Below, in pieces: positions 7,723 through 55,378 of a stretch of DNA of 64,000 nt (position 1 is the stretch's first letter; each line of letters opens with the position of its first letter). The notes below the pieces were generated by a model, which was not told the origin of the DNA, searched no databases, and was given only the letters and a program-made list of their open reading frames with translations. Position numbers and translations under genes: made by a program. The DNA lies in NCBI RefSeq assembly GCF_003086295.3, contig NC_092050.1, forward strand, positions 145,297,699 to 145,361,698, read 5' to 3'. This DNA is from Arachis hypogaea (taxonomy: Eukaryota > Streptophyta > Magnoliopsida > Fabales > Fabaceae).

Positions 7723-10700
7723 ATGGCGTTCGCAGCCACCACGACGGCAACTACTAACCTCTCTGAATTGCACCTCAAAACTTGTTCACCTTCATCACTC
7801 TCACTCACTTCTCCTCATTCTTCATCTTCCTCCTCAACGCTCTTCTTCTTTGGCTCTAAACCCCCATTCCGCACTCTTACACTCACACCCTTCTCTTCTC
7901 TTAGAACCTCACAACAACAACATACAAAACAGAATAACCGTTCTTCTTCCACAACAAAACCTAACACCAACACCAGCACCAGCACCAGCAACCCTTCTGC
8001 CCCATGGCTCGCAAAAACCCCTCCCCCCAATAATTCCTCCAAAAGGGTCACCGAATCTCACACCAACGACCCACTTCATGATACAACGGAAAATCGTTAC
8101 TTTGACGGTGATAAGGGGCAAAACGCGGTTGAGAGGATCGTTCTTCGGTTGAGGAACCTGGGATTGGCTTCAGATGATGATGATGATGATGATGATGAAG
8201 AAGGAAAAGAAGAGGTCTCAATTGGTGGTGCTGGTGATGATTTTCCGGTGACCGGAGAAGAGAGGCTTGGTGAGCTTCTGAGAAGGGAATGGGTTAGGCC
8301 TGATGCTATTGTACGTGAAGATGATGGTGTTGGTGATGATGAGATGGTTTTTTTGCCATGGCAGAGAGAAGTGGAAGAGACAGATATGGGTGCTGCTAAA
8401 GAGGGAGGGGAGAAAGGGATGAGGGATAAGAGGAGAGTAAAGGCTCCAACTTTGGCGGAGCTGACGCTTGAGGACGAGGTTTTGAGGAGGTTAAGGAGGG
8501 AAGGAATGCGTACTAGGGAGAGGGTTAATGTCCCTAAAGCTGGGCTCACCAAGGAGGTTATGGAGAAGATTCATGAGAGGTGGAGGAAGGAGGAGCTTGT
8601 GAGGCTCAAGTTTCATGAGGACCTTGCAAGGGACATGAGGACTGCTCATGAGATTGTTGAGGTTTGGTTCATTGCCTCTGCTTTTGCTTTTGAATTTCTT
8701 TGTTTCGGTTGAGACCTCGGCGCCGATTGATCATCGTGACCTGATAGCGTCAATTGGAATGATGTGTTGGTTTTATAGTTTGCAAATGAATTGATCTCTC
8801 TGAGAAGAGTAATGATCTAGCATCCCAAAAATGTTCTAAACAATTTAATAGTAAAGATTTTTTATGTATTGAAATCTTAAAAAAGTTTTCAACTCTTCTC
8901 GCATTTGGTATTTAGTAGGATGCTTAGGAGGATAGATCATTGCTTATCTAAGAATAAACCCTTTTTCGCGTGCGCGCGAATCATAGATTAGGACTAAAGA
9001 TCATGTTAAAATATAATTCAACATGATGCACACCTTCTAAACCATGCTTTGGAAAATGCAATATCAAATCCAGACATGCTAGAAATGGCAGCTTTTTTTT
9101 TATGTTGAAGTAGTTGTAGAAGTTGACATGTGATAGGACATGAATAATTTACTTCAGTGTCATTCATGTTTTGGTGGGCTTCGTGAGCCGCTTCTAAAAT
9201 TAAAATTTGCATTTGATTTACTTGTTTGGTCGATATATCACTGATATACATATTTATACTTGTATCCTTGTTCAAGCATAGCCATTAGAGATTTACCTTT
9301 GATGTTTGTTCTAATGCGTTGAAGAGCATATCAACTGACTTGTTGCAGTGTGCAGCGCCGAACAGGAGGGTTGGTCACATGGAGGGCAGGTAGTGTTATG
9401 ATGGTTTATCGTGGTGCTAATTACCAGGGGCCTTCATCTGGGGGTCAACACAATGCAAAAGAAGGTGATGCTTTTTTTGTACCGGATGTCTCTTCGAGAA
9501 CAAAAGACAGTGATGCAGCCTCATCATCGGAGAAGAGTGAGCCAATTGTGTGGAATCGAGTACAGCCTGAAAACATGACAGAGGAGGAAGCGGAGTACAA
9601 TGCCCTGCTTGATAGTTTAGGTCCTCGTTTCATTGAATGGTGGGGTACAGGAATACTTCCTGTTGATGCTGATTCACTTCCCCCTACAGTTCCAGGTTAC
9701 AAAACACCCTTTAGGCTTCTTCCTACTGGAATGCGTTCTCGACTAACAAATGCGGAAATGACCAATTTAAGGAAACTTGCCAAGACACTTCCTTGTCATT
9801 TTGCCTTGGGTAAAATTTGTCTGTTGTAATATTTTGTTGAGTTTATTTTCCTTTTACTTATATGGATTATTTCCTGGCAATTATGAAGGGAGAAATAGAC
9901 GTCACCAAGGCCTAGCTTGTGCTATTCTTAAGCTTTGGGAGAAAAGTTTAATTGCAAAGATTGCTGTAAAACGTGGTATCCAGAACACAAACAATGAACT
10001 GATGGCTGAGGAGATAAAGGTCTGTTATTTGTGGTTTCCCATTTGCAGTTATTTGATTCTATAATTGTGCTTGTATTTAATCCAGAACACTGACAATAGG
10101 TTGGAAAGTTGATAACATCAAGTGAAATATTAGAGAATGAGAAGGGAGTGAGACAGAGGAGGCTTGAGGGAGAAGATACATCAGGGGTAGATTAGGTATT
10201 TAGCTCATAAGTTTTTTGTCCTAATCTAGTTGGCAGCCCTAGCTGGTAGAGTTTGTTAGTCAAGTCATAGTTCTTCTAATTAGGTCAATCAGGCTGTAGG
10301 TAACATGAGTTGCTTGTGGGTGGTTCAATTGGAACCAAGACCGTGCGGAGGTGAGGCTGCGGTGTGGGGGTTGTTAAAATGACCTCTGAAGTTTTTAACC
10401 GAAAAAACAGTGTCCCTTTAAGCTGTTGGCTATGCTTTATTCAGTACATTGGAGTAACAAACCAATCAATAATTGTTTTACAGATTGATCTTCCAGTGAA
10501 GTAGTGCGTTTTTGGCATTGACTTTTACTAGTAACATAATTATACCTAAGAATAATTTTAGGGGCATTATATACTCAAAGAATATATTATTTTATTATTT
10601 TCCTTTTATCCATAAGAATGTGGTTCTTTTTTTAATCTTCATTTTTTAAATGTTATCTTTTTGTTTTGGGGGGGGGGGGGGGGGGATCTATTTTGAAGAT

Positions 10701-44047: not shown

Positions 44048-44052
44048 TACAT
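44048..44052 (+). repeat. Target duplication tacat (left) of the Athila-like element
   Basis: tacat precedes TGATGAGCGG and recurs at 54631-54635 after the terminal CA. Removing the insertion joins copia RT sequence (gaagatacat + cctatatctt) in register. Confidence 0.92.
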
Positions 44053-44946
44053 TGATGAGCGGATATTTTATACGCTTTTTGGGGATAATTTCATATAGTT
44101 TTGAGTATGTTTTAGTTAGTTTTTAGTCTATTTTTTTTAGTTTTTAGGAAAAATTCATATTTCTGGACTTTACTATGAGTTGTGTGTTTTTCTGTAATTT
44201 CAGGTATTTTTCTGGCTGAAATTGAAGGAGCTGAGCAAAAATCTGATTCAGGCTGAAAAAGGACTGCTGATGCTGTTGGATTCTGACCTCCCTGCACTCA
44301 AAGTGGATTTTCTGGAGCTACAGAACTCGAAATGGCGTGATTCCAATTGCGTTGGAAAGTAGACATCCAGGGCTTTCCAGCAATATATAATAGTCCATAC
44401 TTTGCATAAGAATAGATGACGTAAACTGACATCCAGGGCTTTCCAGCAATATATAATAGTCCATACTTTGCACAAGAATAGATGACGTAAAATGGCGTTC
44501 AACGCCAGTCTTCTACCCAATTCTGGCGTCCAGCGCCAGAAAAGGATCAAAAGCTGGAGTTGAACGCCCAAACTGGCATAAAAACTGGCGTTCAACTCCA
44601 CAAATGGCCTCTGCACGTGAATTGCTTAAGTCTCAACCCCAGCACACACCAAGTGGGCCCCAGCACACACCAAGTGGGCCCCAGAAGTGGATCTCTGCAT
44701 CATCCATCAAAGTTTATCCAATTTTTGTAAACCTAGGCTACTAGTTTAGTATTTAAACAACTTTTAGAGACTTATTTTGTATCTCATGACATTTCAGATC
44801 TAAACTTTGTATTCTCTGACGGCATGAGTCTCTAAACCCCATTGTTGGGGGTGAGGAGCTCTGCTGTGTCTCGATGAATTAATGCAAGTACTTCTGTTTT
44901 CCATTCAAACACGCTTGTTCCTATCTAAGATGTTCATTCGCGCTTA
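44053..44946 (+). repeat. Athila-like 5' LTR, 3'-truncated
   Basis: Matches the first about 830 bp of the 3' LTR, ending at cattcgcgctta. It differs by a 66-bp tandem duplication (units 44362-44427 and 44428-44493) not present in the 3' LTR. The two LTRs also differ at about ten single positions. Confidence 0.88.
44494..44599. repeat. Palindrome array in the 5' LTR (4 sites, 31-bp spacing)
   Basis: ggcgttcaacgcc (44494), ggcgtccagcgcc (44525), ggagttgaacgcc (44556) and ggcgttcaactcc (44587) start exactly 31 bp apart. Sites one and two are flanked by CTG...CAG or TGG...CCA, which extends the dyad. Confidence 0.9.
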
Positions 44947-45495
44947 AGTGGAAATGAACAGTCCAGGAGGACTCTGGGGTCATATTCTAACCCCTCTACT
45001 GCTTCATATGGGAGTAGCATATGCATACCCTCCATTGGAGTTAGTAGCTTTGAGTTGAATCCTCAGCTCATTATCATGGTGCAGCAAAGTTGCCAGTATT
45101 CCGGTCTTCCACAAGAAGAACCTACAGAGTTTCTGGCACAGTTTCTACAGATTACTGACACAGTACATGATAAAGAAATAGATCAGGATGTCTACAGACT
45201 ATTACTGTTTCCATTTGCTGTAAAAGATCAAGCTAAGAGGTGGTTGAATAACCAACCTAAGGCCAGCATAAGGACATGGAAACAGCTGACAGAAAAATTC
45301 CTGAATCAATATTTCCCTCCAAAAAGGATGACACAGCTAAGGCTGGACATCCAAGGCTTTAAACAAGGAGATAATGAATCCCTTTATGATGCCTGGGAGA
45401 GATACAGAGAGATGCTACGAAAATGCCCCTCTGAAATGTTTTCAGAGTGGGTTCAGTTAGACATCTTCTACTATGGGCTTGCAAAAGGAGCTTAG
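44947..45495 (+). pseudogene. Athila-like gag, N-terminally truncated
   Basis: The frame is open from within the deleted LTR junction. It includes the retrotransposon gag signature (LFPFAVKDQAKRWLNNQP, TWKQLTEKFLNQYFPPKR, LYDAWERYREMLRKCP) and stops at TAG 45493-45495. The frame continues in register after the stop (MSLDYSAGGS), so this is a point lesion or a suppressed stop. The N-terminus has been lost with the LTR/primer-site deletion. Confidence 0.85.
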
Positions 45496-48225
45496 ATGTC
45501 TCTAGATTACTCAGCTGGTGGATCTATCCACATGAGAAAGACAATTGAAGAGGCTCAAGAGCTCATTGATACAGTTGCCCGGAATCAGCATCTGTATCTA
45601 AGCAGCAACCCTTCCATGAATGAAGAGGTTAAAACAGTAACTGCTGAATTCAGTACTGTAAAACAAGCTGCTGAATTCAATCAGCAATTGGATTTTCTAA
45701 CAAAGCAGCTAGCTGAATTCAAGGACAGGCTACAAGAGACAAGGATAGCTAATATACAGATGGACGAACAGTTTAAGCAAACAAAGCAGCAGCTATCAAG
45801 GCAAATAGCAGAAGAATGCCAAGCAGTTCAATTAAGAAGTGGGAAAACATTAAATACCCCACCTCAAGGCATCAAAAATTCAAGAAATGAGCGACCCACC
45901 AAAGATTCACCTGAGGACAGTAAGAGCCCAGGGAAAAATAATTCTGGCACTAAAACGCCAGAAAATGGGTGGAAGGCTAGCGCTGAACGCCCAGACCATG
46001 CCCAAAACTGGCGTTCAGCGCCAGAAACAAGGCAGGATTGGCGTTCAACGCCAGAAATGGGCAAGAATATGGCGTTGAACGCCCAAATGGTGCAGAATCC
46101 AGCGTTGAACGCCCAAAATGGGCACATTTCTGGCGTTCAGGCGCCAGGAACAGACAGTGAGTTGGCGTCTAATGTCACTCCAGCTTCTGACTCTGGTACT
46201 CAATTGCCAGTGAGGGATCAGACACACACAAGTGCTGATAACAACCCCTCTAAAAAGGCTTCTTTAACCACTAAGGTTGAGGAATATAAAGCCAAGATAC
46301 CTTATCCTCAAAAACTCCGGAAAGAGGAGCAGGATAAGCAATTTGCTCGCTTTGCAGATTATCTAAGGACTCTTGAAATAAAGATTCCATTTGCAGAGGC
46401 ACTTGAGCAAATACCTTCTTATGCCAAGTTCATGAAAGAGATCTTGAGTCATAAAAAGGAGTGGAGAGAAACAGAAAGAGTTCTCCTCACTGAAGAATGC
46501 AGTGCAGTCATTCTGAAAAGCTTTCCTGAAAATCTTAAAGACCCTGGGAGTTTTCTGATACCATGCATATTAGAAGGTGATTGCACCAAGACAGCTTTAT
46601 GCGATCTTGGGGCAAGCATCAACCTGATACCTGCATCCACTATCAGGAAGCTTGGCTTAACTGAAGAAGTTAAACCAACCCGGATATGTCTCCAACTTGC
46701 TGATGGTTCCACTAAATACCCATCAGGCGTGATTGAGGACATGATTGTCAGAGTTGGGCCATTCGCCTTTCCCACTGACTTTGTTGTGCTGGAGATGGAG
46801 GAGCACAAGAGTGCTACTCTCATTCTAGGAAGACCCTTCCTAGCAACTGGACGATCCCTCATTGACGTCCAACAGGGGGAAATAACCCTGAGAGTCAACG
46901 ATGATGAGTTCAAGTTGAACGCTGTCAAAGCCATGCAGCATCCAAACACATCAACAGACTGCATGAAAGTTGATCTTATTGACTCTTTGGTAGAAGAGAT
47001 CAACATGGCTGAGAGTCTCGAATCAGAGTTGGAAGACATCTTTAAAGATGTTCAGCCTGATTTGGAGGATTCGGGGGACATGAAAGAGCCTCTGAACTTT
47101 CTTCTGAAAGAGGAAAAACCTCCTAAACCAGAGCTCAAGCCACTACCACCATCCCTGAAATATGCATTTCTAGGAGAAGGTGACACTTTTCCAGTGATCA
47201 TAAGCTCTGCTTTAAATTCACAGGAAGAGGAAGCACTTATTCAAGTGCTAAGGACACACAAGACAGCTCTTGGGTGGTCCATAGGTGACCTTAAGGGCAT
47301 AAGCCCAGCCAGATGCATGCACAAAATCCTATTGGAGGATAATGCCAAACCAGTGGTTCAACCACAGAGGCGGCTAAATCCAGCCATGAAGGAAGTGGTG
47401 CAGAAAGAGGTCACCAAGTTACTAGAGGCTGGGATTATTTATCCTATTTCTGATAGCCCCTGGGTGAGCCCTGTTCAAGTCGTCCCAAAAAAGGGAGGCA
47501 TGACAGTGATTCATAATGAAAAAAATGAACTGGTTCCTACAAGAACAGTTACAGGGTGGCGCATGTGTATTGACTACAGAAGGCTCAATACAGCCACCAG
47601 AAAGGATCATTTTCCTTTACCATTCATAGACCAGATGCTAGAAAGACTAGCAGGTCATGATTATTATTGCTTTTTGGATGGCTACTCAGGTTATAACCAG
47701 ATTGCAGTAGATCCCCAGGACCAAGAGAAAACAGCATTCACATGTCCATCCGGAGTGTTTGCTTATAGAAGGATGCCATTTGGGCTATGTAATGCGCCTG
47801 CAACCTTCCAGAGATGCATGCTCTCTATTTTCTCTGACATGGTGGAAAAATTTCTGGAAGTCTTCATGGATGACTTCTCAGTATATGGAGACTCATTCAG
47901 CTCCTGTCTTGATCACCTGAAACTTGTTCTGAAAAGATGCCAAGAAACCAACCTAGTTTTAAACTGGGAAAAGTGTCACTTCATGGTGACTGAAGGAATT
48001 GTTCTTGGGCATAAAATCTCAAACAAGGGAATAGAGGTGGATCAGGCAAAAATAGAGGTAATTGAAAAATTACCACCACCTGCCAATGTTAAGGCAATCA
48101 GAAGCTTTCTGGGGCATGCAAGATTCTATAGGAGGTTTATAAAGGATTTTTCAAAAATCGCAAAACCTCTAAGCAATCTGCTAGCTGCTGACACGCCATT
48201 TGTGTTTGACACAGAGTGCCTATAG
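45496..48225 (+). pseudogene. Athila-like gag C-terminus, protease, RT and RNase H start
   Basis: 909 codons in one frame. It begins with the gag C-terminus (Gln/Glu-rich coiled coil), then a segment (about residues 150-220) encoded by the palindrome array. Next come the aspartic protease (ALCDLGASINLIPAS), RT with FLDGYSGYNQIAV and catalytic FMDDFSVYG, and the RT connection domain. TAG at 48223-48225 interrupts the start of RNase H. The zinc knuckle common in other families is not evident. The reading is otherwise undamaged over 2.7 kb. Confidence 0.87.
45979..46145. repeat. Palindrome array within coding sequence (6 sites, 30-31 bp spacing)
   Basis: 13-bp dyads start at 45979, 46010, 46040, 46071, 46101 and 46132 (the last has one extra base). 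The intervals are 31, 30, 31, 30 and 31. A weaker site (ggcactaaaacgcc, 45946) precedes them. In the gag-pol frame they encode NWRSAPE, DWRSTPE, MALNAQ and PALNAQ type words. The array is also open in a second plus frame and in minus-strand frames. Confidence 0.92.
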
Positions 48226-49751
48226 GCGTTTGAAACGCTGAAAGCTAAGCTGGTCACAGCACCAGTCATTTCTGCACCAGACTGGACATTACCATTTGAG
48301 CTAATTGTAATGCCAGTGATCATGTCATTGGTGCAGTATTGGGACAGAGGCATGACAAGCTTCTACATGTCATTTATTATGCCAGTCACGTTTTAAATGA
48401 TGCCCAGAAAAATTACACAACCACAGAAAAGGAATTACTTGCAGTGGTTTACACCATTGACAAGTTCAGATCCTACTTAGTAGGATCAAAGGTGATTGTG
48501 TATACTGACCATGCTGCTCTTAAGTATCTACTCACAAAGCAGGATTCGAAACCCAGGCTCATCAGATGGGTATTGCTTCTGCAAGAGTTTGATATAGAAA
48601 TAAGAGTCAGAAAAGGGACAGAGAACCAAGTAGCTGATCATCTGTCCCGGATAGAGCCAGTGGAAGGGACGTCCCTCCCCTTTCTTGAGATCTCTGAGAC
48701 GTTCCCTGATGAGCATCTATTTGCCATTCAGGAAGCACCATGGTTTGCCGATATTGCAAACTATAAAGCTGCAAGGTTCATACCCAAGGAGTACAATAGA
48801 ATACAAAAGAAGAAATTAGTTACTGATGCAAAGTACTACTTGTGGGATGAGCCCTATCTCTTTAAGAGATGTGCGGACGGAATTATCCGTAGGTGTGTCC
48901 CCAGAGAGGAAGCACAGAGAATCCTATGGCATTGCCATGGATCTCAATATGGAGGCCATTTCGGAGGTGAGCGAACAGCCACCAAGGTCCTCCAATGTGG
49001 CTTCTATTGGCCCACACTCTATAAAGATTCCCGAGAGTTTGTATGTAATTGTGACAGTTACCAAAGAGCTGGTAATCTGCCTCATGGTTACGCCATGCCT
49101 CAACAAGGAATCTTGGAAATAGAGTTGTTTGATGTATGGGGAATTGACTTCATGGGACCTTTCCCACCATCATACTCAAACACCTATATTCTGGTGGCAG
49201 TTGACTACGTATCAAAGTGGGTTGAGGCTATTGCCACGCCCACCAATGATACTAAAACAGTGCTGAAGTTCCTCCAGAAACATATCTTTAGCAGGTTTGG
49301 TGTCCCTAGAGTACTAATCAGTGATGGGGGCACTCACTTCTGCAATAAGCAGCTTTATTCTACCATGATTCGGTATATAATTCGCCACAAGATAGCCACT
49401 CCATATCATCCACAAACCAATGGGCAAGCTGAAGTCTCTAATAGAGAATTAAAGAGAATCCTGGAATGGACAGTAAATACCCGTAGAAAGGATTGGGCAC
49501 GGAGCTTGGATGATGCTCTGTGGGCTTACAGAACAGCATTCAAGACCCCTATAGGGACCTCTCCATACCAACTCGTGTATGGTAAGGCATGCCACCTGCC
49601 CGTGGAACTGGAACATAAGGCCTACTGGGCAACCAGATTCCTAAACTTTGATGCCAAATTAGCAGGAGAAAAACGATTGCTCCAGCTAAATGAGCTAGAG
49701 GAATTCAGATTCACAGCTTTCGAAAATGCCAAGCTTTATAAAGAAAAATAA
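48226..49751 (+). pseudogene. Athila-like RNase H and integrase
   Basis: After the TAG the frame continues to about 48338, then a frame change leads into 48339-49751. RNase H motifs: [40 protein letters not shown]. Integrase follows: zinc-binding region ([14 protein letters not shown] ... [11 protein letters not shown]) and the D,D,E core ([31 protein letters not shown]). The second Cys of the expected CxxC pair in the zinc domain is Tyr (CDSYQ), which should impair the fold. A TAA at 49749-49751 cuts the C-terminal domain. Confidence 0.87.
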
Positions 49752-50018
49752 AAAAAATGGCATGACAAAAAGCTATCATCTAGAATCTTTGAACCAGGAC
49801 AGAAGGTCCTGTTGTTTAACTCTAGACTCAGGCTATTCCCCGGGAAACTGAAATCCCGGTGGAGGGGACCATACGTGATTACAAGTGTGTCATCATATGG
49901 TTATGTGGAGCTTCAAGATATTGATTCTGATAAGAAGTTCATTGTCAATGGACAGAGAATCAAGCATTATCTTGAAGGCAACATCGAGCAAGAATGCTCA
50001 AGGCTGAAGCTAGATTAA
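49752..50018 (+). pseudogene. Athila-like integrase C-terminal domain
   Basis: Continues the integrase with LFNSRLRLFPGKLKSRWRGP, the chromatin/DNA-binding C-terminal module, to a stop at 50016-50018. It starts after the premature TAA plus a local frame change. Confidence 0.75.
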
Positions 50019-50050
50019 AAGCTCAGCAAGGTCCAGCTAAAGACAATAAA

Positions 50051-50085
50051 GAAGCGCTTGCTGGGAGGCAACCCAACCATGGGGC
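50051..50085 (+). promoter_or_regulatory. Conserved GGGAGGCAACCC hairpin after pol
   Basis: gaagcgcttgctgggaggca followed by acccaaccatgg lies about 35 bp after the pol stop. It contains the stem TGGG-aggcaa-CCCA and the small palindrome aagcgctt. A matching hairpin follows the ORF of the non-autonomous element (31818-31850). I remember closely similar words at this place in Athila elements of other plants; the function is unknown. Confidence 0.6.
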
Positions 50086-50228
50086 ATCAATCCTCTAAGC
50101 ATTTTTGCCCTATTTTTATTTTTATTTGTTTATATAAAGTTCACTGACACTAAGGTACAAAATCATTTGTATAAGTTTACAGGGTTACAGAAGGAATCAG
50201 CACACAAAACAGAGTAAAAGAGCTCAAT

Positions 50229-50456
50229 GGCAAGAAAACGCCAGTAAAGGGGCATTTTGGGCGTTCAGCGCCCAAAATGGGCATCCACTGGGCGCTGAAC
50301 GCCAGTAATGGTAGCAATCTGGGCGTTCAACGCCAGAAATGGCCACCCACTGGGCGTTGAACGCCAGTAATGGCAGCAACTGGGCGCTGAACGCCCAGGA
50401 GATCAGCATTTGGGCGCTGAACGCCCAAAACAAGCAGTGTTTGGGCGTTCAAACAC
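50229..50456. repeat. Palindrome array after pol (8 sites, 30-31 bp spacing)
   Basis: Dyads are centred at about 50236 (weak), 50266, 50297, 50328, 50359, 50389, 50419 and 50450 (half-site). The intervals are 30, 31, 31, 31, 30, 30 and 31. The core is GGCGYTSARCGCC. Some are extended to GGGCGCTGAACGCCC, others to CTGGCGTTCAACGCCAG-like forms. The 17-18 bp between sites are only weakly alike. Confidence 0.93.
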
Positions 50457-50579
50457 TAGGAAGACAGGGAGGAGCCAAATCCATTTGTCCCACACGTATT
50501 TCCATTTTAATTTCAAATTTTATGCTTCAATGCATGATTTTTTTACATGAACATGTCAAGAACCCTAATTTCTAAAAAT

Positions 50580-50885
50580 CCATCTTTCCAAATTCAATCC
50601 AACTCTTTTCAAAATCTTTTCTGAAAACAAATCTATCTTTTTCACTCAAAAATCTTTTCAACTAATCCATATCTTTTTCAAATATCCATATTATCTTTTT
50701 CAAAATTCAAGAGTTATCTTTTTCAAAAATCTATCATATCTTTTCAAAATTAAACTCAATCTTTTTATCTTTTTCAAAATCCAGATTTATCTTTTTCAAA
50801 AATCTATCCTATCTTTTCAAAATCAAACTATATCTTCTATCTTATCTTTTTCAACTCAATCTTTTTATCTTATCTCTTCCAATTT
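50580..50885 (+). repeat. Degenerate TATCTTTTTCAAAA repeats
   Basis: About ten copies of (T)ATCTTTTTCAAAA-like words separated by short variable pieces (for example at 50670, 50692, 50715, 50764 and 50789). They give a strongly pyrimidine-rich leader ahead of ORF3, with no coding value. Confidence 0.75.
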
Positions 50886-50990
50886 TTCGAAAATCCACCA
50901 CCCCACCCCTTTAAATTTGGGTTCGGCCTCCCCCCTCCTCCATCAACAAGTGCACCTCGATCTCCTTCTATCCCTCTCCTTTCTTTTCTT

Positions 50991-51025
50991 TTGCTTGAGG
51001 ACAAGCAAACCTCTAAGTTTGGTGT
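50991..51025 (+). promoter_or_regulatory. AGGA-loop hairpin plus TAAGTTTGGTGT tract before ORF3
   Basis: ttgcttgaggacaagcaa (50991-51008) is a perfect 7-bp stem with an AGGA loop, followed by ctctaagtttggtgt. The same 18-bp hairpin with a closely similar tract lies right before the 3' LTR at 53210-53246. ORF3 starts 27 bp after this copy. Confidence 0.75.
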
Positions 51026-51051
51026 GTTTATCCGAGATCACTACTAAGATC

Positions 51052-52173
51052 ATGGCTCCCAAAGGAAAACAATCCACTCCAAGAGGCAAGAAAGAGAGCG
51101 TTCCAAAATCACTTTGGAATCAAGGGAAGTTCTTATCTAAAGAACATTCAGACCATTATCTTAAAGTAATGGGTCTGAGATCAGTGATCCCGAAAGTGAG
51201 ATTCGATCTGAAAGAAGATGAATATCCGGAGATCCAGGAGCAAATTCGAATCAGGAACTGGGAAGTCCTAGCTAATCCTGAAACGAAAGTAGGAAGGAAC
51301 ATGGTCCAGGAGTTCTATGCTAACATGTGGCAGACTGACAAGCAAAGACTATCTGGAACTGCCTGCTACGAATTTCGGACCATGGTTAGGGGAAAGATTG
51401 TTCATACCACCCCTGACAAGATCAGAGAGATATTAAAGCTACCTCAGTTAAAGGATGATCCAGACTCCTTCAACAGGAGGATGATGAGAGCAGACATTGG
51501 CCTGGATAAGATTCTAGAGGACATATGTATCCCTGGAGCCAGGTGGACCACCAACACCAAGGGCGTCCCAAATCAGCTCAAGAGAGAGGATCTCAAACCA
51601 GTTGCCAGAGGATGGCTGGACTTCATTGGGCGTTCTCTGTTGCCCACTAGCAACCGTTCTGAAGTCACAGTTAAAAGAGCAGTGATGATTCATTGCATCA
51701 TGACTGGGAAGGAAGTGGAGGTTCATCAGCTGATTTCCACTGAACTCTACAAGATAGCTAATAAAAATTCAAGAGAGGCCAGTTTGGCTTATCCAAGCGT
51801 GATTTCTCTGCTCTGCAAGGACGCTGGAGTCAAGATGGGAATAACTGAATATATCCTAATTGAAAAGTCAATCACCAAAGCATCAATGGAGAGACAACAA
51901 GCACAGGAGGATCCTATCAAGAAGAGAGCACAGGAATTCCTCCCAGAGATTCCTCAAGCAGAATATTGGGAATATCTTGAGACGTCTGTCACCAAGATAC
52001 AGGAAGCTATGGAGCAAATAATAAAACAACAGAAGGAACACAGTCAAATGCTGACCCATATGTTTAAAGAACAAGAGGAGCAGGGACGTGACTTAAGGGA
52101 ACTGAAGCGCCAGAAGTCTTCTGTAATACCAAGCATCCCAAGGATCAGAGGAACCCCCATACCCCCAGAATAA
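51052..52173 (+). CDS. Third ORF of the Athila-like element (putative plant transposon protein)
   Basis: 373 residues from ATG 51052 (MAPKGKQSTPRGKK, a basic, possibly nuclear-localising N-terminus); the frame is open further upstream but only with non-ATG starts. The middle contains FYANMWQTDKQRLSGTACYE and ARGWLDFIGRSLLPTSNRSEV, resembling the 'putative plant transposon protein' family found after pol in Athila-type elements. The C-terminal 90 residues are coiled coil (KIQEAMEQIIKQQKEHSQML). In classical Athila this position carries an env-like ORF, but I see no signal peptide or membrane segment here. Its frame is intact while pol is broken. Confidence 0.75.
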   Translation: MAPKGKQSTPRGKKESVPKSLWNQGKFLSKEHSDHYLKVMGLRSVIPKVRFDLKEDEYPEIQEQIRIRNWEVLANPETKVGRNMVQEFYANMWQTDKQRLSGTACYEFRTMVRGKIVHTTPDKIREILKLPQLKDDPDSFNRRMMRADIGLDKILEDICIPGARWTTNTKGVPNQLKREDLKPVARGWLDFIGRSLLPTSNRSEVTVKRAVMIHCIMTGKEVEVHQLISTELYKIANKNSREASLAYPSVISLLCKDAGVKMGITEYILIEKSITKASMERQQAQEDPIKKRAQEFLPEIPQAEYWEYLETSVTKIQEAMEQIIKQQKEHSQMLTHMFKEQEEQGRDLRELKRQKSSVIPSIPRIRGTPIPPE

Positions 52174-53209
52174 AGGTTGTTAAATTCCAATTTCTGCTTT
52201 AACTCTGTGACAGTGTCCTTATAAAGAGTTTACCTTAGAAGTCATATAATAGTAATTAGTATCTATTTGATTTTATCTTCAATTAAGCTATAGTTTATTT
52301 TTCTCATCATCATTAAACATGAATAAAGTAGTAGATCTTTTGAATAAGAGGCAATAAAATTTCGAGTTTTAATAAGAGAAATTCTAATTAGTTAAATGTG
52401 GTGGCAATGCTTTCTGTCTTCTGAATGAATGCTTGAACAGTGCATATGTCTTTTGAATTTGTTGTTTAAGATTGTTAAATATGTTGGCTCTTGAAAGAAT
52501 GATGAACATGAGACATGTTATTGATAATCTGAAAAATCATAAAAATGATTCTTGAAGCAAGAAAAAGCAGCAAAGAACAAAGCTTGCAGAAAAAAAAAAG
52601 CAAGCAGAAAAAGCCAATAACCCTTAAAACCAAAAGGCAAGGGCAAATAAAAGGGATCCCAAGGCTTTGAGCATCAGTGGATAGGAGGGCCTAAATGAAT
52701 AAAATTCTGGTCTAAGCGGCTAAACCAAGCTGTCCCTAACCATGTGCTTGTGGCGTGAAGGTGTCAAGTGAAAACTTGAGACTGAGCGGTTAAAGTCAAG
52801 GTCCAAGCAAAAAGAAGAGTGTGCTTAAGAACTCTGGACACCTCTAATTGGGGACTTTAGCAAAGCTGAGTCACAATCTGAAAAGGTTCACCCAGTTATG
52901 TGTCTGTGGCATTTATGTATCCGGTGGTAATACCGGAAAACAAAGTGCTTAGGGCCACAGCCAAGACTCATAAAGAAGCTGTGTTCAAGAATCATCACAC
53001 TGAACTAAGAGAATCAATAACACTATCTGAATTCTGAGTTCCTATAGATGCCAATCACTCTGAGCTTCAATGGATAAAGTGAGATGCCAAAACTGTTCAG
53101 AAGCAAAAAGCTACTAGTCCCGCTCATCTAATTAGGATCTGAGCTTCAATCAAAAACTCTGAGATATTATTGCTTCTCAACCTATTAGTCTTCTATTTTA
53201 TTTGTCTAG
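52174..53209. other. Athila-like element spacer between ORF3 and PPT
   Basis: Non-coding, A-rich. It contains repeated phrases of the type gagcttcaat(gg/ca) at about 53069 and 53141, and (c)tgagcggttaaa near 52783, suggesting internal small repeats. No protein recognised. Confidence 0.6.
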
Positions 53210-53246
53210 TTGCTTGAGGACAAGCAACAGTTTAAGTTTGGTGTTG
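53210..53246 (+). promoter_or_regulatory. Terminal AGGA-loop hairpin and PPT region of the Athila-like element
   Basis: ttgcttgaggacaagcaa followed by cagtttaagtttggtgttg abuts the TG of the 3' LTR at 53247. By position it includes the plus-strand primer. It is the second copy of the module at 50991. Confidence 0.75.
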
Positions 53247-54630
53247 TGATGAGTGGATATTTTATACGCTTTTTGGGGATAATTTCATATAGTTTTGAGT
53301 ATGTTTTAGTTAGTTTTTAGTCTATTTTTTTAGTTTTTAGGAAAAATTCATATTTCTGGACTTTACTATGAGTTGTGTGTTTTTCTATAATTTCAGGTAT
53401 TTTTCTGGCTGAAATTGAAGGAGCTGAGCAAAAATCTGATTCAGGCTGAAAAAGGACTGCTGATGCTGTTGGATTCTGACCTCCCTGCACTCAAAGTGGA
53501 TTTTCTGGAGCTACAGAACTCGAAATGGCGTGCTTTCAATTGCGTTGGAAAGTAGACATCCAGGGCTTTCCAGCAATATATAATAGTCCATACTTTGCAC
53601 AAGAATAGACGACGTAAACTGGCGTTCAACGCCAGTCTTCTATCCAATTCTGGCGTCCAGCGCCAGAAAAGGATCAAAAGCTGGAGTTGAACGCCCAAAC
53701 TGGCATAAAAACTGGCGTTCAACTCCACAAATGGCCTCTGCACGTGAATTTCTTAAGTCTCAGCCCCAGCACACACCAAGTGGGCCCCAGCACACACCAA
53801 GTGGGCCCCAGAAGTGGATCTCTGCATCATCCATCATAGTTTATCCAATTTTTGTAAACCTAGGCTACTAGTTTAGTATTTAAACAACTTTTAGAGACTT
53901 ATTTTGTATCTCATGACATTTCAGATCTAAACTTTGTATTCTCTGACGGCATGAGTCTCTAAACCCCATTGTTGGGGGTGAGGAGCTCTGCTGTGTCTCG
54001 ATGAATTAATGCAAGTACTTCTGTTTTCCATTCAAACACGCTTGTTCCTATCTAAGATGTTCATTCGCGCTTAACTGTGATGAAGGTGATGATCCGTGAC
54101 ATTCATCACCTTCCTCAAACCATGAACGTGTGCCTGACAACCACCTCCGTTCTATATCCGATTGAATGAGTATCTCTGAGATCTCTTAATCAGAATCTCC
54201 GTGGTATAAGCTAGAACTGATGGCGGCATTCATGAGAATTTGGAAAGTCTTCACTGGAAGGATGGAAGGTAGCCATTGACAACGGTGATCCACCAACACA
54301 CAGCTTGCCATAGGAGGACGTGCGTGCGTGAATCAGAAGACATAGGAAAGCAGAGATTCAGAAGACAAAGCATCTCCAAAACTCCAACATATTCTCCATT
54401 ACTGCACAACAAGTAATCTTTAATTTATGCTCTCTTAGTTATTCACAATTCAACTGATAAACATAATTGACTTCCTGACTAAGATTTACAAGATAACCAT
54501 AGATTGCTTCAAACCAACAATCTCCGTGGGATTCGACCCTTACTCACGTGAGGTATTACTTGGACGACCCAGTGCACTTGCTGGTTAGTGGTACGCGTTG
54601 TGAAAAGTGTGATTCACAATTAGTGCACCA
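53247..54630 (+). repeat. Athila-like 3' LTR (complete)
   Basis: 1384 bp, TGATGAGTGG to GTGCACCA. It carries the four-site palindrome array at 53621-53726 and a 22-bp tandem duplication (ccccagcacacaccaagtgg, 53764 onward), also present in the 5' LTR. It is followed by tacat. Confidence 0.9.
53621..53726. repeat. Palindrome array in the 3' LTR (4 sites, 31-bp spacing)
   Basis: Sites at 53621, 53652, 53683 and 53714 repeat the 5' LTR array with the same 31-bp intervals and the same site variants. Confidence 0.92.
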
Positions 54631-54635
54631 TACAT

Positions 54636-55378
54636 CCTATATCTTTTAAAACAGACAGGATTACTTGGTTGTAAAGCTGCTGAAATATCTATAGAGCCTA
54701 ACTTAAAATTGAAGCCAGCTAAATCAGAAAATGTAATGGACAAAGCGAGATATCAGCGGTTGGTGGGAAGGCCAATCTATTTATCCCATACACATCCAGA
54801 TATAGCCTTTTCTATAAGCATGGTAAGTCAGTTTATGCATTCACCTGATCGAGAACACATGGATGTTGTCTTTAGAATTTTAAGGTACTTGAAGGGATCG
54901 CCTGGAAAAGGGTTACTCTACAAAAACTATGGACATCTTCAAATAGAAACCTATGTAGATTGGGCTGAGAATGTCATGGACTGAAGGTCAACATCTGAGT
55001 ATTGTACTTTTGTTGGAAGAAACCTGGTTAGTTGGAGGAGTAAAAAACAGAGTGTTGTGGCATGAAGTAGTGCAAAAGCTACGTTTAGAGCAGTGGCTAC
55101 AAGAACTAAAGGTTCCCATTTCTCTACCAATGAGGTTGTATTATGACAACAAATATGCAACTTCTATTGCTCATAATCCAGTTCCGCATGACAGAACTAA
55201 ACATGTCAAAATTGACAAGCATTTTATAAAGGAAAAGATTGAACGAGGACAAATTTGTATCTCATATGTTTCGACTACGGAACAATTAGCAGATGTTCTA
55301 ACTAAAGGATTACTCAAAAAGACCTTTGATAGCATAATAAGCAAGCTGTTAATGAAGGATATCTTCAAGCCAGCTTGA
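54636..55378 (+). pseudogene. Copia RT C-terminus and RNase H remnant
   Basis: Continues the copia pol after the insertion: [37 protein letters not shown], then RNase H with [12 protein letters not shown], a stop, a shift, and a last open part (LYYDNKYATSIAHNPVPHDR, KHVKIDKHFIKEK, VSTTEQLADVLTKGL) ending at 55378. It is followed by a purine-rich gaagaggagta PPT at 55377-55387. Confidence 0.85.

What the first reader, a model, noticed from the sequence alone, without database searches (positions are those of the whole stretch)
44494..53726. Helically phased palindrome arrays at four places in one retrotransposon
In the Athila-like element a 13-bp dyad (consensus GGCGYTSARCGCC) occurs about 22-24 times: four sites in each LTR, six or seven in the gag/pol coding region, and eight after pol. 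Within each array the spacing is 30-31 bp (31,31,31 / 31,30,31,30,31 / 30,31,31,31,30,30,31 / 31,31,31), while the intervening 17-18 bp are poorly conserved. A period of about 30.6 bp equals three turns of B-DNA, so all dyads face the same side of the helix. Coding cannot explain this, because the same spacing holds in LTR, coding and non-coding DNA. It looks like a multimeric binding platform for a dimeric host or element protein, or a structured RNA repeat. The layout superficially resembles a CRISPR array but is not one.
Basis: seen in the sequence. Interest (0 to 1): 0.9.

Follow-up and report, generated by a model that had tools for sequence, protein, structure and literature searches.

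The report
Dyad-site arrays in peanut retrotransposons
A family of peanut jumping genes carries rows of the same short mirror-image DNA site, one about every 31 letters, in its control ends, inside a gene and before its last gene, which looks like a docking strip for a paired DNA-binding protein and resembles what was described in an unrelated group of plant retrotransposons.

Summary
The window lies in a 2.56-Gb genome, inferred to be peanut. One Athila-like element carries 19 clear 13-bp dyads plus four degenerate ones in both LTRs, the gag-protease linker and before its third ORF, 30-31 bp apart. Genome-wide, exact dyad pairs number 232 at 17-29 bp spacing, 55,812 at 30-31 and 2,591 at 32-44; backwards controls gave 0. 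Related families, including one without detectable polymerase, carry arrays too. Between units the dyad is kept (roughly GGMGYT-N-ARCKCC, free centre) while spacers vary in sequence, hardly in length. The gag dyads are read in all three frames. Arm mismatches show no strand preference (49 against 46), which speaks against a sense-RNA hairpin. Strict helical phasing is not shown: families run at 31, 31.5 or 32 bp and breaks have no 10.5-bp phase.
Best reading: multimeric sites for a dimeric DNA-binding protein, spread by tandem duplication and kept by selection, working like the palindromic repeated motifs of Sireviruses (LTR upstream of TATA, and before env). New: a Ty3/gypsy lineage and an extra array in coding DNA. 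The binder is unknown, and no binding data were available.

The parts
44048..44052 (.). target-site duplication TACAT, left
   Evidence: read from sequence
44053..44946 (+). 5' LTR, truncated at its 3' part and joined to gag
   Evidence: alignment to the 3' LTR, 827 aligned positions, 10 substitutions, plus a 66-bp tandem duplication
44494..44599 (.). 5' LTR array: dyads at 44494, 44525, 44556, 44587 (spacing 31,31,31)
44929..45495 (+). gag N-terminal frame (PF03732), ends in a stop; this copy is broken
45496..48225 (+). open frame: rest of gag, linker, protease, reverse transcriptase
45946..45959 (.). degenerate 14-bp unit before the gag array (GGCACTAAAACGCC)
   Evidence: read
45979..46145 (.). 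gag-protease linker array: dyads 45979, 46010, 46040, 46071, 46101 and a 14-bp dyad at 46132
48300..49751 (+). RNase H and integrase frame
50229..50242 (.). degenerate 14-bp unit before the post-pol array (GGCAAGAAAACGCC)
   Evidence: read
50260..50456 (.). post-pol (pre-ORF3) array: dyads 50260, 50291, 50322, 50353, 50383, 50413 and half-decayed 50444
   Evidence: 62-bp period by TRF
51052..52173 (+). ORF3 in the env position, PF20167 Transposase_32 (putative plant transposon protein), 373 aa
53247..54630 (+). 3' LTR, 1,384 bp, TG...CA
   Evidence: read
53621..53726 (.). 3' LTR array: dyads at 53621, 53652, 53683, 53714 (spacing 31,31,31), starting 374 bp inside the LTR
53877..53884 (+). TATA-like box TATTTAAA, 151 bp after the end of the LTR array
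54631..54635 (.). target-site duplication TACAT, right
   Evidence: read from sequence

Best explanation
Each array is a cluster of double-stranded DNA sites for a protein that binds as a dimer, one half-site (about GGMGYT) per subunit, with a free central base pair. The 31-32 bp unit multiplies by tandem duplication (often as a 62-64 bp dimer in which successive dyads lie in opposite orientation) and is copied between places of the element. In element lineages that keep transposing, selection keeps the dyads and roughly the unit length while the spacers drift. In the LTR the array sits about 150 bp upstream of the TATA-like box and most likely acts as the U3 activator; the array before ORF3 would be a second regulatory block, as in Sireviruses; the gag array is an additional block tolerated in a fast-evolving protein linker. 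Shown: motif, positions, spacing, breadth across related families, conservation of dyads over spacers, use of all reading frames, strand symmetry. Inferred: protein binding, activation, selection, and the identity of the binder (unknown, host or element).
For: Genome: exact dyad pairs 232 at 17-29 bp spacing, 55,812 at 30-31, 2,591 at 32-44; control 0 in each search. 301 of 340 distances up to 100 bp lie at 29-33 in the window element plus 30 loci (12 of these loci were chosen for a gap of 19 or more). Without asking for a match: of 204 perfect dyads in the window element and L041-L058 (redundant copies), 165 have a dyad with at most 3 mismatches 30-32 bp downstream, 126 of them perfect, against 0 of 204 at 21-23 bp. 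135 non-redundant units: 0.8-1.8 bits at each arm position, 0.2 at the centre, at most 0.23 from position 9 outwards. Matched changes at positions 7 and 8 (z 5.2 and 4.2). G.U-type and A.C-type arm mismatches are equal: 49 and 46 of 117 non-redundant units after dropping loci of doubtful orientation, 52 and 57 of 140 before, as duplex DNA predicts. Eight chosen LTR copies: dyads 0.845 identical, spacers 0.714, no gap in either, 65 gap openings in the flanks over 28 pairs. CpG observed/expected 0.75-1.0 in arrays, 0.29 in 44600-54630 without them. An internal array persists in nine loci whose element matches gag and protease but not RT or integrase.
Against: The units were picked by likeness to the consensus (up to 3 mismatches), which inflates arm conservation; flanks were not picked. 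In the LTR the dyad letters are not more conserved than the LTR flanks (10 of 32 fixed-letter columns variable, against 79 of 209 upstream and 34 of 107 downstream); the contrast is with the spacers (40 of 54). One further aligned LTR (L052p) has a 1-bp insertion in dyad 1, and unit 4 has decayed in L048 and L054. The matched changes at positions 7 and 8 are absent in the window-type families (z 0.1 and 0.6) and in the others largely trace to two ancestral unit types, so they are few events. An array inside gag is an odd place for a promoter element. No binder is known.
Confidence: 0.5

Rival explanations
1. Structured RNA: the arrays act as hairpins or long intramolecular duplexes in the transcript (packaging, translation control, or as a source of small RNAs that the host uses), and pairing is what is kept.
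For: RNA folding z-scores of -6.4 to -10.9 for the three arrays on both strands; adjacent C/G-centred dyads alternate in orientation (153 different, 33 same, redundant units), so two neighbours can form a long hairpin; in L060, L063, L064 and L068 15 of 21 spacers of one parity pair in at least 4 of 6 positions, 2 of 21 of the other (my count from the list). Palindrome clusters attract small RNAs in maize Sireviruses (PMC10760457, passages citing an earlier paper).
Against: No excess of G.U over A.C mismatches (49 and 46, p 0.84; 52 and 57, p 0.70). The innermost T/A pair, in the loop of a simple hairpin, is the best conserved arm position. Spacer halves do not covary in general (95 spacers, z -1.1 with three registers; z -3.5 with one register). 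No Rfam family matches.
Confidence: 0.2
2. Plain minisatellite: the 31-bp unit multiplied by slippage or template switching, and the dyad looks conserved because it is the seed at which duplication and copying happen; no function.
For: Tandem Repeats Finder finds 30-62 bp periods with 74-84% matches in the gag and post-pol arrays; spacers in one array are more alike than between arrays (0.47 and 0.37); family-specific periods of 31, 31.5 and 32 bp and array breaks without helical phase; in the LTR dyads are no more conserved than their flanks; tandem repeats are common between pol and 3' LTR in Retand elements (PMC11963269, passages).
Against: Spacers carry almost no information across families while their lengths stay mostly 17-19 bp (93 of 95; only spacers of 16-20 bp were taken); the 31-bp register of the LTR array has no gap in 8 chosen LTR copies although the spacers are its most divergent part; the same motif lies at three separate places and in a family without detectable polymerase.
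Confidence: 0.2
3. Strictly helix-phased platform: the function needs all dyads on one face of the helix at three turns.
For: Spacings of 31-32 bp equal 2.95-3.05 turns at 10.5 bp; 31.5 in coding relatives (32 of 43 short distances). Of 50 places listed (of 232) with spacing 17-29, 26 are at 18-21, about two turns, and none at 22-25 (my count; four of the 26 come from one 21-bp tandem array and several from one family). This last result raised my odds slightly.
Against: 39 breaks in 31 stretches have no 10.5-bp phase (R 0.15, p about 0.39); the window copy at about 30.6 drifts; descent of a duplicated unit explains the period; the first places listed at 32-44 are at 32 and 37-39, none near 42.
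Confidence: 0.1

Closest known systems
Sirevirus repeated motifs (RM), Bousios et al. 2010, PMC2829016 (section 9 and passages read)
   Same: Palindromic 10-20 bp boxes, at least 8 and up to 32 per element, mostly starting 200-400 bp inside the LTR and upstream of TATA, a second cluster before the env-position gene in elements that have one, in CpG-rich stretches
   Different: Sireviruses are Ty1/copia with a CGG-CCG core in all but one, and no fixed spacing is stated in the section read; here a Ty3/gypsy element, GGMGYT half-sites, 31-32 bp period, a third cluster inside gag coding DNA, and arrays in a family without detectable polymerase. The paper calls the RM Sirevirus-specific; by its abstract its comparison set was Ty1/copia
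VANC target arrays of Arabidopsis VANDAL elements, Hosaka et al. 2017, PMC5735166 (abstract and passages)
   Same: Short element-specific motif at high density in several places of one element, multiplied as tandem repeats that differ between relatives
   Different: The VANC21 motif is 9 bp (YAGTATTAY, not a palindrome), in one orientation and mainly non-coding, in VANDAL elements; no VANC-like protein was seen here (ORF3 matches only PF20167 above cut-off)
Tandem repeats between pol and 3' LTR of Ty3/gypsy Retand elements, PMC11963269 (abstract and passages)
   Same: Tandem array after pol in a Ty3/gypsy element
   Different: Described as family-specific repeats of unknown function; here the same dyad also lies in LTR and gag
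Tnt1 BII / Tto1 repeat boxes (recalled only; one search found no paper, the listing was not followed for this)
   Same: Tandem activator boxes in U3 of plant LTR elements, as recalled
   Different: Ty1/copia, few copies, LTR only, as recalled

Membership tests
Sirevirus RM boxes | element belongs to Ty1/copia Sireviruses | tested here: not met
   order protease-RT-RNase H-integrase, integrase after RT as in Ty3/gypsy
Sirevirus RM boxes | palindromic boxes clustered in the upper half of the LTR, upstream of TATA | tested here: met
   array starts 374 bp inside a 1,384-bp LTR and ends 151 bp before TATTTAAA; that this box is the promoter is not tested
Sirevirus RM boxes | second cluster before the env-position gene | tested here: met
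   array 50260-50456, ORF3 from 51052; also in L043, L044, L046, L053, L056, L057
Sirevirus RM boxes | CGG-CCG core | tested here: not met
   half-site GGMGYT
Sirevirus RM boxes | clusters form CpG islands | tested here: inconclusive
   CpG o/e 0.75-1.0 in arrays against 0.29 in 44600-54630 without them, but arrays are short
VANC-type anti-silencing system | element encodes a VANC-like (DUF1985) protein | tested here: not met
   ORF3: PF20167 and two hits below cut-off, no DUF1985; only the window's element was searched
VANC-type anti-silencing system | element protein binds the motif and removes methylation | not testable with these tools
   no binding or methylome data
Athila-like Ty3/gypsy element | gag, protease, RT, RNase H, integrase plus an extra ORF before the 3' LTR | tested here: met
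   placement in Athila rests on layout and recall, no tree was built
CRISPR array | near-identical repeats with unrelated spacers in a prokaryote beside cas genes | tested here: not met
   plant proteins and genome size; repeats vary, spacers share weak features

The most novel reading that the evidence does not exclude
The arrays are one shared recognition code by which a whole clan of Athila-like elements in Arachis, autonomous and polymerase-less alike, recruits a dimeric trans-acting factor (possibly element-encoded, such as the ORF3 protein) along the entire element to escape silencing or to organise its transcription: a Ty3/gypsy counterpart, evolved separately, of Sirevirus motifs and VANC targets.
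Probability: 0.15. Interest if true: 0.85.

Novelty: new variant of a known kind. Interest (0 to 1): 0.6.

Why it matters
It would show that two unrelated superfamilies of plant LTR retrotransposons arrived at the same architecture, dense palindromic boxes in the LTR and before the env-position gene, which has been described as Sirevirus-specific. With more than 55,000 exact paired sites in one crop genome it could be a large sink for, or source of, binding sites of one host factor, and it can be tested directly with DAP-seq, chromatin and methylome data.

Tried and rejected
Amino-acid repeat as cause: rejected, three frames used. Relation to bacterial or phage DNA: the pair pattern hit 35 prokaryote contigs and 1 viral contig; only L001 was read, by eye a duplicated coding-like stretch, and the others were not pursued. 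IMG/VR search with the protease piece: 2 stretches matched a pattern, none confirmed. Protein search with the post-pol translation: no candidate; the LTR was not searched that way. Spacer hairpin as a general rule: rejected; a subset does show inverted-repeat spacers. Structure of ORF3: mean pLDDT 40.7, not used further. Name of the family: papers on peanut elements seen in listings and passages only; no comparison with a named family was made. Papers on such arrays in Ty3/gypsy or in Arachis: none recognised in the listings (open-licence library; listings are capped, so this is no proof of absence); Bousios 2016 is not held. Passages of PMC12786077, PMC10578108 and PMC6911290 added nothing used here.

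My test that changes within LTR dyads stay inside the consensus (12 of 25 against 18% expected) is partly circular, because the M and K positions were added after seeing these LTRs; I do not lean on it. L052p was dropped from the 15 LTRs, and 8 of the 15 were used for the identities; they are not independent (some pairs are about 95% alike). The 18 loci all come from the first listing (10-16 Mb of one chromosome), not a random sample; the 12 were chosen for a gap of 19 or more. The second protein search used the array region as query, so its hits were picked for arrays. Orientation of L059-L070 was set by hand; L060, L061, L064 and two oppositely lying arrays (L048, L052) were dropped for the repeat of the strand test. 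Finer genome counts (22-25 and other spacings) did not complete.
Full report
What is there. The element spans 44053-54630: a 1,384-bp 3' LTR (53247-54630, TG...CA), a 5' LTR that is truncated and joined to gag, and a 5-bp target duplication TACAT on both sides (read). The LTR parts differ at 10 of 827 aligned positions, so the insertion looks young. Pfam finds gag, protease, reverse transcriptase, RNase H, integrase and, in the env position, PF20167. Gag ends in a stop and the pol frames are interrupted: this copy is defective. The best protein matches that carry names are Arachis, and the genome has 2,557,474,382 bases in 440 contigs; peanut is my inference from this.

Check of the observation. 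The dyad pattern has 22 matches in the window at up to 2 mismatches against 2.72 expected, 0 of 100 shuffles reaching that; 19 lie in the element. With two degenerate 5' units, the 14-bp dyad at 46132 and the half-decayed one at 50444 the count is 23. In 15 units of this copy the dyad is 0.85 identical and the surrounding 18 positions 0.40, background 0.26.

Breadth. In the whole genome exact dyad pairs number 232 with 4-16 bp between them (spacing 17-29), 55,812 with 17-18 (spacing 30-31) and 2,591 with 19-31 (spacing 32-44); the backwards pattern gave 0 in each search. In 18 loci of 10 kb, 188 of 209 distances within clusters are 29.5-32.5 and 150 are exactly 31.0. Twelve further loci, chosen because they hold a gap of 19 or more, have 50 of 91 at 32 and 25 at 31, in some arrays alternating 31, 32, 31, 32. 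Together with the window element, 301 of 340 distances up to 100 bp are 29-33. Elements with pol (L044, L046, L047, L053 and others) carry arrays in the gag linker and after pol, and in the LTR where that part is covered. Nine loci (L041, L042, L043, L045, L051, L052, L055, L057, L058) hold an element that matches gag and the first 108-133 residues of the protease-RT query, that is the protease, but neither RT nor RNase H-integrase; two of them (L043, L057) match ORF3 at 44%. L055 also has an RT-piece match at 9538-9990, beyond the element's LTR. These carry one internal array and an LTR array, decayed in L057. In coding relatives found by protein search the dyad can be read from the peptide in each frame: 18 of 127 proteins have at least one pair within 40 nt, and all 43 such distances are 29.5-32.5, 32 of them 31.5; shuffled proteins gave 0.005 per round. 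Two of the 18 are named Arachis, the other 16 carry no name; seven of the 127 came from a search with the array region as query.

What is conserved. From 423 units, 135 remain after removing those 80% or more alike. Arm positions 1-6 carry 0.8-1.8 bits each, the centre 0.2 (C 52, G 48, T 24, A 11), positions 9-15 at most 0.23. Because units were picked by likeness to the consensus, I also looked without that condition: of 204 perfect dyads in the window element and L041-L058 (redundant copies), 165 have a dyad with at most 3 mismatches at 30-32 bp downstream, 126 perfect, and 0 of 204 at 21-23 bp. Positions 3 and 4, the CpG, vary largely by C-to-T and G-to-A, and also allow a C-to-A, G-to-T variant (GGAG...CTCC). 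Positions 7 and 8 change in matched fashion (z 5.2 and 4.2), but this comes from L059-L070 (z 7.3 and 5.1) and not from the window-type families (0.1 and 0.6), and largely reflects two ancestral unit types. Between eight chosen LTR copies dyads are 0.845 identical, spacers 0.714, upstream 0.871, downstream 0.851, with no gap in the array and 65 gap openings in the flanks over 28 pairs. A further LTR of the same alignment, L052p, has a 1-bp insertion in dyad 1, and unit 4 has decayed in L048 and L054. So the dyads are about as conserved as the rest of U3, not more, and the spacers are the free part: window against the other seven, spacers are 0.43-0.56 and dyads 0.79-0.94. BLAST identities of these loci to the window put RT at about 89-90% and the long post-pol matches at 66-70%.

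DNA or RNA. A sense-strand hairpin should tolerate G.U but not A.C. After orienting units by the element, 52 arm positions have G.U and 57 have A.C in 140 non-redundant units (p 0.70); with doubtful loci dropped, 49 and 46 in 117 (p 0.84). That is what duplex DNA predicts. The innermost T/A pair is the best conserved, which a simple hairpin does not need, though pairing between two dyads would use it. The arrays do fold strongly on both strands (z -6.4 to -10.9), adjacent dyads alternate in orientation (153 different, 33 same), and in L060, L063, L064 and L068 many spacers of one parity are themselves inverted repeats (15 of 21 pair in at least 4 of 6 positions, 2 of 21 of the other parity; my count), so an RNA or small-RNA role is kept as a rival. 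In general spacer halves do not pair better with their own partner than with a shuffled one (95 spacers, z -1.1).

Phasing. 31-32 bp is 2.95-3.05 turns at 10.5 bp, so neighbours do face roughly the same side. But the same follows from a duplicated unit of that length. Breaks in arrays (39) show no 10.5-bp phase (R 0.15, p about 0.39). Against that, of the 50 places listed (of 232) with spacing 17-29, 26 are at 18-21, none at 22-25 and 24 at 26-29 (my count); a class about one turn shorter is a hint for phasing, though four come from one 21-bp tandem array and several from one family. I do not claim functional phasing, and raised its odds only from 0.08 to 0.10.

Coding. The gag array of the window reads SAER, WRSAP, WRSTP, ALNA, ALNA, GVQAP, that is, the same DNA in all three frames. 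Selection on a repeated peptide cannot explain it. In other relatives GVQTP and LALNA alternate at 63-nt intervals, where in-frame duplication is a sufficient cause.

Comparison. Bousios et al. 2010 (PMC2829016; section 9 read) describe palindromic repeated motifs in Sireviruses: at least 8 and up to 32 copies, in the upper half of the LTR upstream of TATA, and before env when env is present, with CpG islands. The layout here matches (374 bp inside the LTR, 151 bp before TATTTAAA, second block before ORF3, CpG o/e 0.75-1.0 against 0.29), in a different superfamily and with a different core, plus a third block in gag. It works like that system, as far as layout can tell; it is not a member. VANC targets (PMC5735166, passages) are the best precedent I saw for a code that runs through a whole element. 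No such protein was found here.

Verdict. Real, genome-wide, and a new variant of a known kind. Most likely a multimeric site for a dimeric DNA-binding protein; the binder and the effect are untested.

Noticed in passing
window 50995-51024 and 53214-53243: The same 30-bp motif (TTGAGGACAAGCAA...AAGTTTGGTG, with a small inverted repeat GCTTG/CAAGC) stands just before ORF3 and at the end of the internal region beside the 3' LTR, as if the polypurine-tract region were duplicated; Sireviruses also have multiple PPT copies (PMC2829016 abstract passage).
   Followed up: partly
window 44362-44491: 66-bp tandem duplication in the 5' LTR just before the array, absent from the 3' LTR.
   Followed up: no
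L041, L042, L043, L045, L051, L052, L055, L057, L058: A related family with gag and protease but no RT or integrase match in the element; two of the nine (L043, L057) keep an ORF3 44% identical to the window's.
   Followed up: partly
L047, L048, L049, L050, L053, L054, L056 post-pol arrays: One unit in the post-pol array has a widened centre (GGGCGTTTAGAAAAACGCCC), shifting everything downstream by about half a helical turn.
   Followed up: partly
L060, L063, L064, L068: Many spacers of one parity are themselves inverted repeats, in at least two sequence versions (CAGCCAG...CTGGCTG and CAGTGAG...CTCACTG), so 63-bp dimers could form long hairpins.
   Followed up: partly
G000:C10:35374429-35374525: Five perfect dyads in a 21-bp tandem array, a two-turn instead of three-turn spacing.
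   Followed up: no
window 54631-55300: The element is inserted in what looks by eye like a decayed Ty1/copia reverse transcriptase region.
   Followed up: no
window 50670-50880: Pyrimidine-rich TATCTTTTTCAAA tandem repeat between the post-pol array and ORF3; matches to this part of the window are seen in other families too.
   Followed up: no
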